Below are positions 30,306 to 49,816 of a stretch of DNA of 53,282 bases, one piece after another. Source of the stretch: a virus; the IMG/VR virus record IMGVR_UViG_3300021471_000002, positions 1-53,282 of that record; one strand, given 5' to 3'. The first letter of the stretch is position 1. Each line of letters opens with the position of its first letter. A program made the position numbers and the translations under genes. Under the pieces are notes generated by a model. It was given only the letters and a program-made list of their open reading frames with translations, was not told where the DNA came from and did no database searches.

Positions 30306-30334
30306 AATATACCACACTTGTACTACGCTGTCAA
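30306..30334 (-). promoter_or_regulatory. Leftward sigma-70 promoter before DUF1257
   Basis: On the minus strand TTGACA (30334-30329) and TATATT (30311-30306) are separated by 17 bp. The spacer ends GTGTGG directly before the -10 and contains GTAC, features shared with the promoters at 37455 and 50085. It overlaps the 3' end of the DnaC-like gene, so the DUF1257-to-DUF3150 block can be transcribed separately. Confidence 0.85.
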
Positions 30335-31141
30335 GCGCTTTATTGTTCTCATTCGATAATCCGATCCGCGCATGTCAACGAACAGGCGGCCATAGTCTGA
30401 CATTTGCCAGAGCCGGGAGAACGAGGCCGGCCCGATCCAGGACGTCATCTCGGTTGGTTGCTTGTTGGTCGTGACGACGAGCGGACCGTGTACATACCGA
30501 CCGTTGATGATCTGGTACATCTTTTCCTGGTGCCAGGCGGTGTTGGCGACGTGCTCCAGGCCCATTTCATCCATCACCAGCAGGTCGGCGGTGGCGAGGT
30601 CGCGTATGATGCTGTACTCGCTTGCGGCCTCGTCGGCGTAGCTGGCGCGTATGCGGGCCAGGAGATCGGGGACAGAGACGGCCACGATGTGCCACCCGGC
30701 GGCGGTCAGTTCGTTGGCGATGGCGCTGGCGAGGTGGGTCTTGCCGGTGCCGAAATTGCCCCACAGGATCAGGGCGACGGGAATGCCCACCCGCGCCTCG
30801 CGACAGAACGCCTGCGCTGCCCGCAGGCCGCGCTGCTGGTATGGCAGCGTGGTCTCGAATTCAGCGAACGAGGCGCGGGGGTTGAGTGTCGTCCTGGCGA
30901 TGGCATCCTCCCTGGCGGATCGGATAAACTCTTGTTCCATCCTGCGCCGGTGGCACTCAAGGCACGGGACGAACGACTCCGCACCATTCTCTTCCGTGAA
31001 TACCCAGATCGGTTCGCCACACTCCGGGCAGGTGTGCACGGACGGGCGGAATCTCTCACGCCCCGGGACCCGGAGCAGGGGGGCGTTCAACAATTGCCGC
31101 AGCGACTGCGGCTTGTTGTTGTTCGATCTTATTGTGCTCAT
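30323..31141 (-). CDS. DnaC-like helicase loader
   Basis: A 272-aa AAA+ protein. The N-terminal zinc finger reads HTCPECGEPIWVF ... SFVPCLECHRRR (C-x2-C ... C-x2-C). Then ILWGNFGTGKTHLASAIANE (Walker A), LLVMDEMGLEHVANTAWHQE (Walker B) and an arginine-finger region PASFSRLWQMSDYGRLF. This is the DnaC/IstB/lambda P-type loader that delivers the host replicative helicase to the origin. Its start lies inside the initiator gene (86-nt overlap), as is common for loader-initiator pairs. Confidence 0.9.
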   Translation of the reverse strand: MSTIRSNNNKPQSLRQLLNAPLLRVPGRERFRPSVHTCPECGEPIWVFTEENGAESFVPCLECHRRRMEQEFIRSAREDAIARTTLNPRASFAEFETTLPYQQRGLRAAQAFCREARVGIPVALILWGNFGTGKTHLASAIANELTAAGWHIVAVSVPDLLARIRASYADEAASEYSIIRDLATADLLVMDEMGLEHVANTAWHQEKMYQIINGRYVHGPLVVTTNKQPTEMTSWIGPASFSRLWQMSDYGRLFVDMRGSDYRMRTIKRLTA

Positions 31142-31970
31142 TGTGTGTTTTCTCCTCGCGTTGTTTCCTCAGCCAGACCCGGGCCCGGGCCCAGTTACGC
31201 GGGATGTCCCACGGGTCCGGGGGTTGGCCGCGGCGACCGCGCCAATCGGCGGCATACCAATAGCGGGCAAACTGAGGAATGTGGGCCGGGGTTTTGCCGG
31301 CGTCAAGCAGCTGTTTCGTGACGCGATTGAGTTTTCCTCTATCGGTCTGTGTGATCAGTGTCAGATCAATTTGACACAGTTTTGCGATGGCGGCAAACAT
31401 TTCACGCCGCGTGCTTTCATCATCGCCGGGGGTTGAAACAGTACTCTCTGTAGAAGTACTCTCTGTAGAAGTACTCTCTGATATAGAATGCAGGTTTTCT
31501 GCATTCTGACCGGCATCAGATTGCAGGTTTTCCGCATTCTGACCGGCATCAGATTGCAGGTTTTCCGCATTCTGACCGGCGTCAGATTGCGGGTTTTCCG
31601 CATTCTGAGGTGTGTTCTGGGGATGGTCGTTCCGAGAATAGTACGAATCTATGAGTGCTACCAGGTTCTCGGTGTTCACGCGGTAGTGCAATTTTCCGCG
31701 TGGTCCGGTACGCATTTCGTCCAGCACACCGAGCTGCCGGAGCTTCCTACGGGCACTCTCTTGCTCCGTTCGAGTGAGTGCCGTTTCTGACTCGATCTCG
31801 GACTGGGTTTTCCAGATGTACCCGTCCGAGCGGTTGCCTTTTCCTGTCCAGTACAGTAGCTGGCACAGGAATACAGCCGCCTTGACACCGCCGACGATAC
31901 GGGCGATGTCGGGGTGGTAGGCCACCGGCCTGTCGGAGAGTAGACTCAGTAGTGCCCGTCCGTCGCTCAT
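31056..31970 (-). CDS. Replication initiation protein with internal repeats
   Basis: A 304-aa protein. ATG 31970 is set by GGAGGTTTG. The N-terminal ~120 residues are a winged-helix domain of the kind found in phage replication initiators (VGGVKAAVFLCQLLYWTGKG, TKTQSEIESETALTRTEQES-like, KLRQLGVLDEM). A repeat region with four copies of an 11-residue unit (SDAGQNAENLQ) and a Ser/Thr/Glu run (STSTESTSTEST) separates it from a C-terminal DnaD-like helical domain. The DNA of the repeat region (31441-31608) is a candidate origin, as in lambda O. The winged-helix start plus loader neighbour give good confidence. Confidence 0.82.
   Translation of the reverse strand: MSDGRALLSLLSDRPVAYHPDIARIVGGVKAAVFLCQLLYWTGKGNRSDGYIWKTQSEIESETALTRTEQESARRKLRQLGVLDEMRTGPRGKLHYRVNTENLVALIDSYYSRNDHPQNTPQNAENPQSDAGQNAENLQSDAGQNAENLQSDAGQNAENLHSISESTSTESTSTESTVSTPGDDESTRREMFAAIAKLCQIDLTLITQTDRGKLNRVTKQLLDAGKTPAHIPQFARYWYAADWRGRRGQPPDPWDIPRNWARARVWLRKQREEKTHNEHNKIEQQQAAVAAAIVERPPAPGPGA
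31441..31480. repeat. 15-bp direct repeats inside the initiator gene
   Basis: GTACTCTCTGTAGAA is present twice in tandem from 31441 and 31456, followed by a third partial copy GTACTCTCTG at 31471. They encode the STSTESTST segment. Together with the 33-bp repeats next to them they form an iteron-like cluster in the initiator gene. Confidence 0.85.
31489..31608. repeat. 33-bp tandem repeats (iteron-like, candidate origin)
   Basis: Units begin at 31489, 31522, 31555 and 31588, exactly 33 bp apart, each starting TGCAGGTTTT or TGCGGGTTTT and containing GCATTCTGACCGGC. Three are full and the fourth is partial. Only two or three bases differ between units. They code for the QNAENLQSDAG repeat, so protein repeats and DNA iterons coincide. 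Confidence 0.85.
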
Positions 31971-31984
31971 CAACAAACCTCCTG

Positions 31985-32097
31985 AAAACAAAAGTGCCCG
32001 ACTCTCTGAGCGAGGGCGTGACGGTGGCCTACCCCAAGAAAGGCCTTTGCCCACGCCCAGAGAGTCGGGCGCTTTTTTACCTTTTTCACCTTGGGGT
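31985..32097 (-). promoter_or_regulatory. Hairpin leader of the replication operon (attenuator or structured RNA)
   Basis: In the leftward transcript a perfect 13-bp stem joins 32070-32058 (GCCCGACTCTCTG) with 32008-31996, and an inner 7-bp stem joins 32058-32052 with 32020-32014. A T-rich run (TTTTGTTTT, 31993-31985) follows, then the ribosome binding site and ATG 31970. The apical loop contains CTTGGGGT (32038-32031), complementary over 8 bases to ACCCCAAG just upstream of the stem (32097-32090), allowing a pseudoknot or an alternative anti-terminator. The + strand also has TTTTTT after the stem (32073-32078), so it may terminate both ways. It lies between a promoter and the initiator gene. 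Confidence 0.75.
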
Positions 32098-32126
32098 TCG
32101 TCGGCCCGTCACAGCCTGATGCTGTC

Positions 32127-32156
32127 ATTATATCACATTCCACCTTCAATTGTCAA
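32127..32156 (-). promoter_or_regulatory. Leftward sigma-70 promoter of the replication operon
   Basis: Minus-strand TTGACA (32156-32151), an 18-bp spacer and a perfect TATAAT (32132-32127). Predicted start near 32120 gives a leader of about 150 nt that includes the long hairpin at 31985-32097. It overlaps the last codons of the Cys-rich gene. Confidence 0.85.
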
Positions 32157-32363
32157 CCCCGGTCCCGGTGGTGGCTCCGGTGGCGGTGGCGCGTACATGG
32201 AGCATTGGCCCTGGCGGGGTTCCTGGAGCTCGGGCAGTAATTCGCCCGTGATTGCGCAGATGATGTAGCCCTCGCCCGGCGGTTCGCCTGGCTCCCCCGC
32301 GTCCCGGCAGGCCGGGACGCGGTGGGCAAACGCGCAGTCAGCGCATGCGGGGATCTTTATCAT
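32133..32363 (-). CDS. Small Cys-rich protein
   Basis: A 76-aa protein. ATG 32363 overlaps the TGA of the AAA ATPase (ATGA), with GGAGGGTAATCAG upstream. It reads IPACADCAFAHRVPACRDAG then IICAITGELLPELQE and QGQCSMY, giving at least five cysteines suited to a zinc or iron-sulfur site, and ends in a proline-rich tail. Coupled directly to the Ycf46-like ATPase, so a partner role is possible. No family recognised. Confidence 0.6.
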   Translation of the reverse strand: MIKIPACADCAFAHRVPACRDAGEPGEPPGEGYIICAITGELLPELQEPRQGQCSMYAPPPPEPPPGPGLTIEGGM

Positions 32364-33802
32364 CTGATTACCCTCCTGACCATTCTTCCGCCCTGGGCCT
32401 CCTCGGCCTGTTGGGCGGACTGCTGTTGTGACGCCGGCACGCACCGGCCGGCGGCCCAGTCGCGCAGGGCGTCGATTTGCTCGCGCATCGTGCGCGTGAG
32501 CGGTACGACGAACTGCGCCGCCTCTGCCGCCGTGGTGTTGTGTATGGCGGCGAGGCGGTAGGCGGTTGCTATCTCGGCGCCCGTCCAGCCGCGCTCATCC
32601 GGGCGCGGCTCGAGGGGGACGTCAAACACGCGGGCGTAAAGTGCTGCGATCTCCGCCCGCTCATCCACGCCGGGAACATCGAAGAAGAACAGGGCGTCCC
32701 ATCGCTCGGCGCGGGTGAACTCGGGGGGCAGCTTGGTTATGTCATTGCAGGTTGCTATGACATAAATGCCGCTGCCGGCCGGTCGGTCGTTCAACCAGGT
32801 GAGGAAGGCCTCACCGACGCGGGCGGCGGTGCCACCGTCGGAGCGGTGGCTGGACTGCACGCCGGACAATCCTTTCTCGATTTCGTCGATGATAAGGATG
32901 GCCGGCGCCATCGCCTCGACTGTTCTCAGAGCAGCGTGCATTTTCTGCTCACTCTCTCCGACGAGTGAGCCGAACACGCGGGAGAACTCCAGCTTGATCG
33001 CCGGGACGCCGACCTCGTTTCCGAGCGCCTGTGCGACCATCGTTTTCCCCACCCCTGGGACGCCGAGGAGTAATGCTCCTCGGGCGAGCTCGTGGCCACA
33101 CGTGGCACGCAGGAATTTCTTGACGTTATCGAGGCCGCCGATGTCATCGAACGTCCAGGACGTCCTGCTCCACTCCAGGACGGAGCTTTTGCGCAGCAGG
33201 CGTTCCTTCTGCGCTGCGATCTCGTCGGCGACTATCTCGCCGTGCCGGCTGATCGAGAGCGCGATACTGTTCACGAACTCGTATGCGCTCAGTCCGCGGC
33301 CGATGCGGCCCAGGGCAGCCGCCTCATCCTCGGTGATGGGGACGCCGTTGGCGACGGCGTTGGCGGCCGCGATGTCGGCCAGTTCCTCGGCGGTCGGGAG
33401 GTCGTGGTCAATGACCACTACGTATCGCTCGATCTCCGCCGGTACGGTCACGCCCGGTGGGGCGATGATGACCAGGCGGAGCATCGCCGAACTCCAGTTC
33501 GCCGCACCGTCGAGCAGGTGCTGAATGACGGACGGCGATTTGAGGTACAGGTGATAGTGTACAGCGATTAGCACGGTCGGCGGATCGGCTTCATTCAGCG
33601 CCCGGCCAACGGCGGTGGGATCGCCGTTGGCCTGTCCGCTTTCTCCGCGCTGCCAGGCCTCGAACGTGCGGATGCCGGCCACGCTGTCCCAGACCAGGAC
33701 GGTGGCCTCCCCCGCCCATTGGACCGCGACGTCGTTGACGGCGCGGAGCGGCTCGTGGGTAGCGACTACGACGATGGGAAAGGCGCGGATTTCATCTTTC
33801 AT
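32360..33802 (-). CDS. AAA ATPase, Ycf46-like
   Basis: A 480-aa protein. ATG 33802 follows GAGGAGTCATAAG. The N-terminal half has the Ycf46 layout: IVVVATHEPLRAVNDVAVQW (EE-type opening), VLVWDSVAGIRTFEAWQRGE, VLIAVHYHLYLKSPSVIQHL, then VVVIDHDLPTAEELADI. A single AAA module follows: Walker A LLLGVPGVGKTMVAQALGNE, Walker B AILIIDEIEKGLSG, sensor-1 VIATCNDITKLPPEF, and a C-terminal helical lid. Ycf46 is conserved in cyanobacteria and plastids with unclear function. Finding it with DUF1257 (Ycf35) and DUF2997 in one phage operon region is notable. Confidence 0.82.
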   Translation of the reverse strand: MKDEIRAFPIVVVATHEPLRAVNDVAVQWAGEATVLVWDSVAGIRTFEAWQRGESGQANGDPTAVGRALNEADPPTVLIAVHYHLYLKSPSVIQHLLDGAANWSSAMLRLVIIAPPGVTVPAEIERYVVVIDHDLPTAEELADIAAANAVANGVPITEDEAAALGRIGRGLSAYEFVNSIALSISRHGEIVADEIAAQKERLLRKSSVLEWSRTSWTFDDIGGLDNVKKFLRATCGHELARGALLLGVPGVGKTMVAQALGNEVGVPAIKLEFSRVFGSLVGESEQKMHAALRTVEAMAPAILIIDEIEKGLSGVQSSHRSDGGTAARVGEAFLTWLNDRPAGSGIYVIATCNDITKLPPEFTRAERWDALFFFDVPGVDERAEIAALYARVFDVPLEPRPDERGWTGAEIATAYRLAAIHNTTAAEAAQFVVPLTRTMREQIDALRDWAAGRCVPASQQQSAQQAEEAQGGRMVRRVIR

Positions 33803-33803
33803 C

Positions 33804-34286
33804 TTATGACTCCTCGATGGTGTACACCAGGTAGGTGTACCACCCGCCACCGTCCTCTGTGTGCGAGGAGACGATGATTGGATCGTCCTCGGTCGGCAGG
33901 CCCGGCTCGTCCGGCTTCTTGTAGCCGGCCGGGCATTCATCGAGCGGGAGCAGGTCATCATACACGCGCTCGATGACGACGGCGCGGCGGCGGAGGCGCG
34001 GGTTGCGGATGGATTCTACGGGGCGGATTACGAGCTGGTAATGCTCGAAGTCCACACCATCCTCGGCGTCCATGTGTCCTGTGTGGCGCCGGAAGTGCGC
34101 TACACAGGGGGTAGTGATGATGTCATAGAATCCGAATCCGGTGGGGATACGAATGGCGAACGGGAGGCGGTAGGCGCTGTTGCTGGCGAGATGTACCGCG
34201 TCCATACGACCGCCATAGTTGGCGCGGTGCTCGATCTCCGCGCAGTTTTCAAGATACAGGTTTGTGATTTCAAAGTATACGGACAT
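33804..34286 (-). CDS. Hypothetical protein upstream of the AAA ATPase
   Basis: A 160-aa protein starting at ATG 34286 with AAGGAG 9 nt upstream; one base separates its stop from the ATPase start. It is rich in Tyr/His and beta-like (YFEITNLYLENCAEIEHRAN, RLPFAIRIPTGFGFYDIITT, TPCVAHFRRHTGHMDAEDGV) and closes GGGWYTYLVYTIEES. No family recognised. Its coupling suggests a substrate or adaptor of the ATPase. Confidence 0.55.
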   Translation of the reverse strand: MSVYFEITNLYLENCAEIEHRANYGGRMDAVHLASNSAYRLPFAIRIPTGFGFYDIITTPCVAHFRRHTGHMDAEDGVDFEHYQLVIRPVESIRNPRLRRRAVVIERVYDDLLPLDECPAGYKKPDEPGLPTEDDPIIVSSHTEDGGGWYTYLVYTIEES

Positions 34287-41351: not shown

Positions 41352-41397
41352 TCTGTCACCTCCTATTGCTGATATAGTGTAAGTGTGCTACGCGCGT

Positions 41398-41427
41398 ATT
41401 GTACCATATTAACACCGCACTTGTCAA
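41398..41427 (-). promoter_or_regulatory. Leftward sigma-70 promoter of the early operon
   Basis: Minus-strand TTGACA (41427-41422), 18 bp and TACAAT (41403-41398). It drives the Phd-like gene and probably the following early genes. Its -35 lies only 45 bp from the -35 of a rightward promoter (41472), so the two are divergent and could share regulators. Confidence 0.82.
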
Positions 41428-41471
41428 GTAAGTCCCTCGCGGCTTTCTCTCAAGACCCGGGCGGTTATGTG

Positions 41472-41501
41472 TTGACACGGCACGGTGTGTTGTTGTATAA
41501 T
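41472..41501 (+). promoter_or_regulatory. Rightward sigma-70 promoter with leaderless start
   Basis: TTGACA (41472-41477), 18 bp and TATAAT (41496-41501). Transcription should start near 41508 and the methyltransferase ATG is at 41511, so the mRNA would have essentially no leader and no Shine-Dalgarno site. Confidence 0.87.
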
Positions 41502-41510
41502 AATGACACC

Positions 41511-42824
41511 ATGATCGAGCTGCGGGACAGAATCATCGATCTGCGGCGCATTGACAGTGCGGAGTTGCAAGACAACGATGGCAACTGGCGCACCCACCCA
41601 CTGGCGCAGCGCGAGGCGCTGGCGGCTGTGCTGGACGAGGTAGGGATTGTCAACGCGCTCATTGCATACGAAAGTGAGCGGCAGGGAGGCCTGACGCTGA
41701 TAGACGGCCACCTCCGGGCGAATGAACACGCCGGAGTGTGGCCGGTTTTGGTTTTGGACCTCACCGACGACGAAGCGGACGTGGTACTGGCGACTCTGGA
41801 TCCGCTGGCAGGGATGGCGCGAACCATACCGGGGGCGTTGGCGTCGTTGGTGGATGGCATCACCGACGTCTCTCCCGACGTCCAGGCGACGTTGGACGCT
41901 ATTGCCAGGCAGGCGGACGGTGACATAGCGCACGCGATGGACGGTGACGGCGAGGTTGTCGAAGAGGGCGAGGCACGGGATCGTTTGGTGGCGGACTGGG
42001 AGATCGAGCGGGGCGCGGTGTGGTCTATCAGCTCGGCCTCGGTACGCGGCGGCGCGCATCGGGTAATGTGTGGCTCATCGCTAGAGCGCAGGGATCTCGA
42101 TGTGTTGTTCGACGGTCGCGTGGCCGATATGGTGTTTACCGATCCGCCCTACGGCATCCGGTTCGAGCCGGAGGATAGGAAACTCCGTGCTCGCGGCCCG
42201 CGTCACCGGTTCGCCGGCGGCATCATCGGTGACGATCAAGAGTTCGAGCAAAAAAAGTGGCTGTCGGCTGTTGATTCTTACTACGCCGGCGCGATATACA
42301 TCTGCGCTGCTAGAGACAGCTACCCGGAGCTGTGGACCTGGCTGCGGATCAGGTATGGCCGTCCGCCGACGGTCATCGTCTGGGTGAAAGAGATGTTCAC
42401 GATGACCCGGCGCGATTACCATCACCAGCATGAATTCTTGTTCTACGGTGAGAGCGGTGATGCTGGTCAGGCGTTGAACGACGAGATGATGGACGCCGGC
42501 GGGGGGATGGTGTTGTACTCCTGGAATGCCCGCCGCCGGTGGCTGGCCGGGCGAGGGGAGACGGATTTGTGGTTCATCAGGCGGGTGTCGTTGCGTGAGT
42601 ATGTACATCCGACACAGAAGCCGGTCGAGTTGGTCGAGCGAGCGATCACGAACTCCTGTCAGCGGGGAGGCGTGGTCGCCGATTTTTTTGGCGGGTCGGG
42701 GACAACGATGGTGGCGGCGGAGCGGACCGGGCGATTATCGTTGACGATGGAGCTGGATCCGCGTTTTGTCGCCGTCACGCTGAACCGCGCCCGCAGCCTG
42801 GGGCTGCGGGTCGAGCGGCTGTGA
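41511..42824 (+). CDS. ParB-like domain fused to DNA methyltransferase (N6-adenine type)
   Basis: A 437-aa protein; the ATG at 41511 follows directly on a consensus promoter. Residues ~10-105 form a ParB/Srx-like domain (GNWRTHPLAQREALAAVLDE, LIDGHLRANEHAG, DLTDDEADVVLATLDPLAGM). The methylase has motif IV TDPPYGI (211-214 DPPY) and the AdoMet motif FFGGSGTTMVAAER near the end, the order of beta-class enzymes; DPPY points to adenine-N6. No restriction enzyme is present, so it probably protects phage DNA. The ParB domain is shared with the next gene (over half identical), a tandem duplication. Confidence 0.88.
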   Translation: MIELRDRIIDLRRIDSAELQDNDGNWRTHPLAQREALAAVLDEVGIVNALIAYESERQGGLTLIDGHLRANEHAGVWPVLVLDLTDDEADVVLATLDPLAGMARTIPGALASLVDGITDVSPDVQATLDAIARQADGDIAHAMDGDGEVVEEGEARDRLVADWEIERGAVWSISSASVRGGAHRVMCGSSLERRDLDVLFDGRVADMVFTDPPYGIRFEPEDRKLRARGPRHRFAGGIIGDDQEFEQKKWLSAVDSYYAGAIYICAARDSYPELWTWLRIRYGRPPTVIVWVKEMFTMTRRDYHHQHEFLFYGESGDAGQALNDEMMDAGGGMVLYSWNARRRWLAGRGETDLWFIRRVSLREYVHPTQKPVELVERAITNSCQRGGVVADFFGGSGTTMVAAERTGRLSLTMELDPRFVAVTLNRARSLGLRVERL

Positions 42825-42839
42825 AATTCAGGAGGTAAT

Positions 42840-44249
42840 GTGACAGAGAAGCGAAAGACACAGCACGGCTACCGTGATCGTATTGTCGAACTGGTACGTG
42901 TACACTCCTCCGATCTGCAGGACAACGAGGGTAACTGGCGCGTGCATCCCCTGGCGCAGCGCGAGGCGCTGGCCGGGATTCTGGAGCAAGTCGGGATCGC
43001 CGATGCTCTGCTGGCGTACAGATCGCAGCGCGCCGGCGGGGCTCTGGTCGTAATTGACGGTCATCTGCGCCGTGAATTCGGCGGTACCTGGCCGGTGTTG
43101 ATCCTGGACGTCACCGACGACGAGGCCGATCTGCTGTTGACCACGCTGGATCCGCTGGCATCACTGGCGCAGATGGACGGGGATAAGATGCGCGAGCTAA
43201 CGGAGCGTGTAGCACAATCGGCGGACGCGCGACTGCGGACGATGCTGGCCGATCTCGGTACAGAGGCCGAGTTGGCGGCATTTCGTGCCGCCGCCGCTGT
43301 GGAGAGTGGTAGCACGGACGACGCAGAGGTGCCGGACTACGTCGAGGCGGCGGATACGTTGCTGGAGAAGTGGGAGGTGCGATACGGCGACGTATGGAGT
43401 GCGTGCGACGGTGAGCATTTCATCATCTGCGGCGACTGCCGCGAGGCGGCGACGTGGGAGCGGCTGCTGGGAGCAGCGGGACTCGACAGTGTCAATGGTG
43501 TGATCACCTCCCCGCCATACGCCGAACAGCGGAAGAAGCAGTACGGCGGCGTGCCAGAAGGCGAGTATGTGGACTGGTTCGAGGCAGTTCAACGGAATAT
43601 CCGCACGTGGCTGGCCGACGACGGTAGTTTTTTTCTGAACATCAAGCCGCATGCGGCACGAGGTCAGCGCGTGCTGTACGTGTTCGACCTGGTGCTGGCG
43701 ATGGTGCGGAGGTGGGACTGGATGTTTGTCGACGAGTTGATCTGGTACAAAATCGGTCTCCCCGGCGGCTGGCGTAACCGATTGCGCAACTGCTTCGAGC
43801 CGATCTATCATTTCTCGAAGCAGCGGCAGATACGATTCTACCCGCGCAACGTGGGGTCGGAGGGCGACGTGCCCCGCTATCGCGTTCCGGGTAACTGGAA
43901 TCCGAAGACAGGGAACGCCGGTATACCGCCGGCGAATCGCCGTGAGCGTGGAGTGGCGCGGCCGGGCAACGTGATCCAGGTGCATGTGAACCAGGAGGCG
44001 CTGCCGCACGCTGCCGTGTTCCCGGTGGCGCTGGTCGAGTTTTTCGTCAAACTGGCCTCGGAAGATGGCAATGTGTGGCTGGATCCGTTCTTGGGCAGCG
44101 GCACGACAATCGTGGCGGCGCACCGCCTGGGTCGGCGGGGGCTGGGGATCGAGCATCTGGCGAGGCACGTTGCCGTGTCGCTGGAACGGATGGCTGCGCT
44201 GGGCATGGAGCCGCGGCTGGAGCGGCGGGAGGAGAAGGAGGAGGAGTAG
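42840..44249 (+). CDS. ParB-like domain fused to DNA methyltransferase (N4-cytosine type)
   Basis: A 469-aa protein starting at GTG behind AGGAGGTAAT. The N-terminus repeats the ParB-like domain of the previous gene (NWRVHPLAQREALAGILEQV, VVIDGHLRREFGGTWPVLIL). The catalytic motif is TSPPY (223-227), typical of N4-cytosine enzymes, and DPFLGSGTTIVAAHRLGRRG binds AdoMet. So the duplicated pair diverged to two chemistries. It overlaps no neighbour and lies 2 nt before the terminase small gene. Confidence 0.88.
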   Translation: MTEKRKTQHGYRDRIVELVRVHSSDLQDNEGNWRVHPLAQREALAGILEQVGIADALLAYRSQRAGGALVVIDGHLRREFGGTWPVLILDVTDDEADLLLTTLDPLASLAQMDGDKMRELTERVAQSADARLRTMLADLGTEAELAAFRAAAAVESGSTDDAEVPDYVEAADTLLEKWEVRYGDVWSACDGEHFIICGDCREAATWERLLGAAGLDSVNGVITSPPYAEQRKKQYGGVPEGEYVDWFEAVQRNIRTWLADDGSFFLNIKPHAARGQRVLYVFDLVLAMVRRWDWMFVDELIWYKIGLPGGWRNRLRNCFEPIYHFSKQRQIRFYPRNVGSEGDVPRYRVPGNWNPKTGNAGIPPANRRERGVARPGNVIQVHVNQEALPHAAVFPVALVEFFVKLASEDGNVWLDPFLGSGTTIVAAHRLGRRGLGIEHLARHVAVSLERMAALGMEPRLERREEKEEE

Positions 44250-49005: not shown

Positions 49006-49093
49006 CGGGGGACCTTTCCCCCCTCCAGGGCGTCCGAGTGGTCGGGCGCCCTGGAGGGGGCCGGAGCGCGGTCGTCTGCGCTCCGGCGGCGGG
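49006..49093 (-). repeat. Duplicated double stem-loop, copy 1
   Basis: About 85 bases nearly identical to 49731-49816. Contains two hairpins: CCCTCCAGGGCG/CGCCCTGGAGGG (49021-49058) and CCGGAGCGC/GCGCTCCGG (49061-49086). It begins right after the stop of the gene at 49095 in leftward sense and has no T run, so it is an intercistronic structure rather than a terminator. Confidence 0.88.
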
Positions 49094-49730: not shown

Positions 49731-49816
49731 CGGGGGCCTTTCCCCCTCCAGGGCGTCCGAGTGGTCGGGCGCTCTGGAGGGGGCCGGAGCGCGGTCGTCT
49801 GCGCTCCGGCGGCGGG
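49731..49816 (-). repeat. Duplicated double stem-loop, copy 2
   Basis: Same structure as 49006-49093 with a few substitutions. It separates the genes at 49820 and 49507. Confidence 0.88.

What the first reader, a model, noticed from the sequence alone, without database searches (positions are those of the whole stretch)
31985..32156. Promoter plus long hairpin leader before the replication initiator: candidate attenuator or riboswitch-like RNA
A perfect promoter is followed by a 13-bp plus 7-bp nested stem with a T run just before the start site, and the apical loop has 8 bases complementary to the leader upstream of the stem. A loop-to-leader pairing could form a pseudoknot or break the terminator, which would gate synthesis of the initiator and loader.
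Basis: partly seen in the sequence, partly recalled or inferred. Interest (0 to 1): 0.8.

Follow-up and report, generated by a model that had tools for sequence, protein, structure and literature searches.

The report
Hairpin leader before phage replication initiator
In this uncultured phage the gene that starts DNA replication is preceded by a strong promoter and a ~150-nucleotide RNA leader that could fold in two competing ways, so it may act as an on/off gate for replication, but no close relative was found to confirm it and the ordinary reading (a plain hairpin or weak terminator) is not excluded.

Summary
On the minus strand a 12/12 extended -10 promoter (32156-32127) precedes a ~150-nt leader. 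The leader holds a 17-bp stem (13 bp perfect, 32070-32054/32012-31996), the strongest inverted repeat of the window. A T-rich run, TTTTGTTTT, follows 2 nt later, then the SD and ATG of an O-like initiator. The loop-leader 8-mer is real and is part of a longer complementarity in register (GTGACGG..ACCCCAAG with CTTGGGGT..CCGTCAC; duplex -33.9 kcal/mol; chance 0.1-0.4%). Before the 3' arm is transcribed, this leader-loop pairing is the predicted fold; afterwards the terminator hairpin wins. This supports an attenuator-like two-state leader, analogous to plasmid rep attenuators (pT181, pIP501). Against it: the U-run is interrupted and scores poorly as a terminator; SD masking is not specific to this leader; no antisense promoter or Rfam family was found; none of 83 scorable initiator homologues has a comparable leader; no close relative exists to test covariation. 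The two helices also cross, so both could coexist as a pseudoknot. Verdict: a plausible lineage-specific RNA switch on a phage initiator operon, unproven; a functional analogue of known attenuators, not a demonstrated member.

The parts
32127..32156 (-). sigma70-type promoter TTGACA-18-TATAAT with extended -10 (TGATATAAT); transcription start inferred near 32120
32106..32112 (-). leader segment GTGACGG, complementary to CCGTCAC in the apical domain
32090..32097 (-). leader segment ACCCCAAG, complementary to loop CTTGGGGT
32054..32070 (-). 5' arm of the main stem (13 bp perfect, 17 bp with one G-U); in the early fold it self-pairs (32072-32066 with 32059-32053)
32031..32038 (-). apical loop CTTGGGGT
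32018..32024 (-). apical segment CCGTCAC
31996..32012 (-). 3' arm of the main stem
31985..31993 (-). T run TTTTGTTTT, candidate termination zone (weak by d'Aubenton-Carafa score, -22)
31978..31983 (-). Shine-Dalgarno AGGAGG of the initiator gene
31056..31970 (-). replication initiator, O-like (phrog_9773, E 1.6e-40), ATG at 31970
31485..31608 (.). 33-bp tandem repeat x3.8 inside the initiator gene, candidate origin iterons
30323..31141 (-). DnaC-like helicase loader (phrog_50, E 7e-52)

Best explanation
A two-state RNA leader that tunes or gates transcription of the initiator-loader operon. RNA polymerase starts near 32120. Once ~110 nt are made, the leader (32112-32090) pairs with the apical part of the nascent hairpin (32038-32018), and the terminator's 5' arm folds on itself. 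If this early fold persists, polymerase reads through into the initiator. If it does not form, or something binds the leader, the 17-bp hairpin forms over the U-rich run and part of the transcripts end near 31985-31990 as a ~130-nt RNA. Shown: the sequence elements, their non-random complementarity, and the predicted order of folds. Inferred: the start site, actual termination, the switching, and any signal (initiator feedback or an RNA/protein binding the leader).
For: Perfect promoter. Strongest hairpin of the window, with z = -5.0 for the leader. Leader-apical duplex better than 99.6% of shuffled leaders and 99.9% of other 48-mers. MFE of the nascent RNA at 88-120 nt is the leader-loop fold, replaced by the terminator hairpin from ~124 nt; nested barrier ~37 kcal/mol, so it would be a kinetic trap. 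Energy of the 108-nt nascent RNA is in the best ~1% of leader shuffles. It is the only one of the five promoters with a hairpin leader; the four others have short or no leaders.
Against: Terminator score is negative: d = -22, or -7 if the stem is extended, against +30 for a trp-like control. The two helices cross rather than exclude each other, so a pseudoknot with the terminator intact is about as stable. No conservation: 83 scorable initiator homologues lack it, and no close relative was found for covariation. All evidence comes from a single sequence.
Confidence: 0.42

Rival explanations
1. The promoter and hairpin define a small RNA gene or a fixed leaky terminator: most transcripts stop after ~130 nt, and the initiator is made by constant read-through. 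There is no switching; the leader-loop match is incidental or stabilises the small RNA as a pseudoknot.
For: A promoter-to-U-run unit of ~130 nt is what an sRNA gene looks like; the pseudoknot estimate is as good as the nested fold.
Against: Weak terminator score. No Rfam match. The initiator SD starts only 1 nt beyond the U run, which suits a leader more than a separate gene.
Confidence: 0.25
2. The long stem is a processing or stability element of the initiator mRNA (RNase III site or 5' stabiliser, as in the lambda N leader), not a terminator.
For: 17 bp plus A-U extension is long double-stranded RNA directly before an SD; such stems are RNase III substrates (general knowledge).
Against: The U run right after the stem is unexplained. 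SD masking, which processing would relieve, is not specific to this leader: 24% of shuffled leaders mask as well, and the SD stays masked without leader or hairpin.
Confidence: 0.18
3. A DNA-level palindrome (protein-binding dyad or remnant of a dispersed repeat) that has no RNA role.
For: The 13-nt arm also occurs as the arm of a dispersed palindromic repeat in two Planctomycetaceae MAGs (47 and 14 copies).
Against: The match stops at the 13-nt arm; inner and flanking sequences differ, so homology is not shown. The element sits between a perfect promoter and its SD with a U run on the transcript side.
Confidence: 0.12

Closest known systems
pT181 repC / pIP501 repR transcription attenuators (PMC5703833, PMC4981023)
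   Same: Initiator mRNA with an untranslated leader; terminator-like stem-loop just before the start codon; an upstream leader sequence that pairs within the structure and can prevent the terminator.
   Different: No counter-transcript promoter found here; the leader pairs with the apical domain rather than the 5' arm; phage O-like initiator instead of a plasmid Rep; the terminator is weak by score.
Pseudoknot riboswitches (e.g. SAM-II, preQ1)
   Same: Loop-to-leader pairing crossing a stem is topologically alike.
   Different: No sequence/structure match in Rfam, no conserved ligand core, far larger stem; no ligand suggested.
Lambda N leader RNase III hairpin (from general knowledge)
   Same: Long hairpin between an early promoter and an SD.
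   Different: No nut-like context tested or found; SD masking not specific here.

Membership tests
Plasmid rep transcription attenuator (pT181/pIP501 type) | Terminator-like stem-loop with poly-U immediately before the initiator start | tested here: inconclusive
   Stem strong; U run interrupted and 2 nt off; score d = -22
Plasmid rep transcription attenuator (pT181/pIP501 type) | Pre-emptor sequence in the leader pairing with the 5' arm of the terminator | tested here: not met
   The leader pairs with the apical domain; the 5' arm self-pairs
Plasmid rep transcription attenuator (pT181/pIP501 type) | Antisense RNA promoter on the opposite strand within the leader | tested here: not met
   No + strand site of 8/12 or better in 31600-32110; none in the wider scan
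Known riboswitch or leader families (Rfam 15) | Match at gathering score | tested here: not met
Intrinsic terminator | GC-rich hairpin followed at once by a U tract | tested here: inconclusive
   7 of 8 T starting 2 nt after the stem, but large apical domain and negative score
Regulatory RNA with conserved structure | Covariation in relatives | not testable with these tools
   No close relatives found; distant homologues have no leader

The most novel reading that the evidence does not exclude
A phage replication initiator controlled by a self-contained pseudoknot attenuator. The nascent leader captures the hairpin loop before the terminator closes, giving transcription-level gating of replication without an antisense RNA, perhaps with feedback from the initiator or another phage factor binding the leader.
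Probability: 0.2. Interest if true: 0.65.

Novelty: new variant of a known kind. Interest (0 to 1): 0.4.

Why it matters
RNA attenuation of initiator synthesis is classic for plasmids. If the switch is real, it would show the same logic in a phage, with a loop-capture design instead of a counter-transcript, and would link the timing of phage replication to nascent RNA folding.

Tried and rejected
SD sequestration as a specific second switch: rejected, because 24% of shuffled leaders mask the SD as well and it is masked in both states. Leader peptide: a 52-aa frame (ATG 32128-32126) runs through the hairpin and ends in TGATG on the initiator start. Its ATG lies upstream of the inferred start site, it has only a weak AAGGTGG SD for read-through mRNA, and it has no phage homologue. 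Antisense promoter: none. Rfam: only chance miRNA and other matches below gathering. Planctomycete repeat with the same 13-nt arm: match does not extend, treated as coincidence. Conservation with the terminase relatives: no match of leader or of loader; initiator hits only weak, partial ones. L139, the only homologue with a 14-bp hairpin shortly before the initiator, has no U run and an unrelated AT-rich sequence.

Full report
The window is an IMG/VR virus record of 53,282 bases. On its minus strand the genes at 31056-31970 and 30323-31141 match an O-like replication initiator (phrog_9773) and a DnaC-like loader (phrog_50). Upstream lie a small ORF (32133-32381) and an AAA ATPase (32360-33961).

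The promoter TTGACA-18-TATAAT is 12/12 with TG before the -10. The leader contains the strongest inverted repeat of the window (score 21.6; five shuffled windows reached at most 17.3) and folds at -74.9 kcal/mol (z -5.0). Four other consensus promoters of the phage (30334, 37483, 41427 on -, 41472 on +) have short or no leaders and no such hairpin, so the leader is special to the initiator operon.

The loop-leader complementarity is larger than reported. GTGACGG..ACCCCAAG in the leader and CTTGGGGT..CCGTCAC in the apical domain pair in register; the duplex energy is -33.9 kcal/mol against -21.6 +/- 3.8 for shuffled leaders (0.4% as good) and 0.1% of 999 other window segments. Folding the growing transcript gives the leader-loop fold as MFE from 88 to 120 nt, with the 5' arm of the terminator in a small hairpin of its own. 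From 124 nt the terminator hairpin becomes the MFE. The nested refolding barrier is ~37 kcal/mol. This is the signature expected of an attenuator with a kinetic antiterminator. Because the loop pairing and the lower stem use different bases, they could also coexist as a pseudoknot: a crude estimate gives -67.5 against -64.7 kcal/mol for the nested fold at 136 nt. That would leave the terminator intact, so the direction of the effect is not settled.

Weak points. The U run is TTTTGTTTT after a 2-nt spacer; the d'Aubenton-Carafa score is -22 (-7 with the stem extended), against +30 for a trp-like control. Rfam has nothing. Masking of the SD by the leader, which I first took as a second level of control, is not specific. 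No antisense promoter was found, so the plasmid rep attenuators of pT181 and pIP501, described in PMC5703833 and PMC4981023, are the closest analogue in logic but membership fails on two defining features.

Comparative test. Initiator homologues from phages and IMG/VR (88 fetched, 83 with a scorable start; ~35-55% identity at the N-terminus) were checked for the 200 nt upstream. In nearly all, the initiator follows the preceding gene closely, and none has a comparable stem plus U run. No close relative of the leader, initiator, loader or ATPase was found, so covariation is untested. A pattern scan of genomes found the 12-nt arms in a dispersed palindromic repeat of two Planctomycetaceae MAGs. 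The match ends with the arm (13 nt), so I regard it as coincidence.

Conclusion: a real, non-random, lineage-specific structured leader that most likely modulates transcription into the initiator operon in an attenuator-like way, with moderate confidence. Each functional step remains inferred.

Noticed in passing
31485-31608: 33-bp tandem repeat (3.8 copies, 95% matches) inside the initiator gene, coding for QNAENLQSDAG repeats; resembles origin iterons inside lambda O.
   Followed up: partly
30334-30306 (-), 37483-37455 (-), 41427-41398 (-), 41472-41501 (+), 32156-32127 (-): A set of near-perfect promoters; the four on the minus strand share TG before the -10 (TGTGGTATAnT-like). The two at 41.4 kb are divergent, between minus- and plus-strand gene blocks.
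   Followed up: partly
49019-49087 and 49742-49810: A pair of adjacent near-perfect hairpins (CCCCCTCCAGGGCGTCCGA..., GCCGGAGCGCGG...) present in two nearly identical copies 723 bp apart.
   Followed up: no
L176, L175 (Planctomycetaceae MAGs): Dispersed paired palindromic repeat GTAGCCCGACTCTCTGAGTCGGG-N-CCCGACTCAGAGAGTCGGGCTAC, 47 and 14 exact copies in two ~9-10 Mb MAGs.
   Followed up: partly
41385-42824 and 42840-44249 (+): Two adjacent DNA methyltransferase genes of related families (phrog_498, phrog_67) upstream of the terminase gene.
   Followed up: no
31971-32128 (-): 52-codon open frame running through the whole hairpin, ending TGATG on the initiator start; could couple translation on read-through mRNA.
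   Followed up: partly
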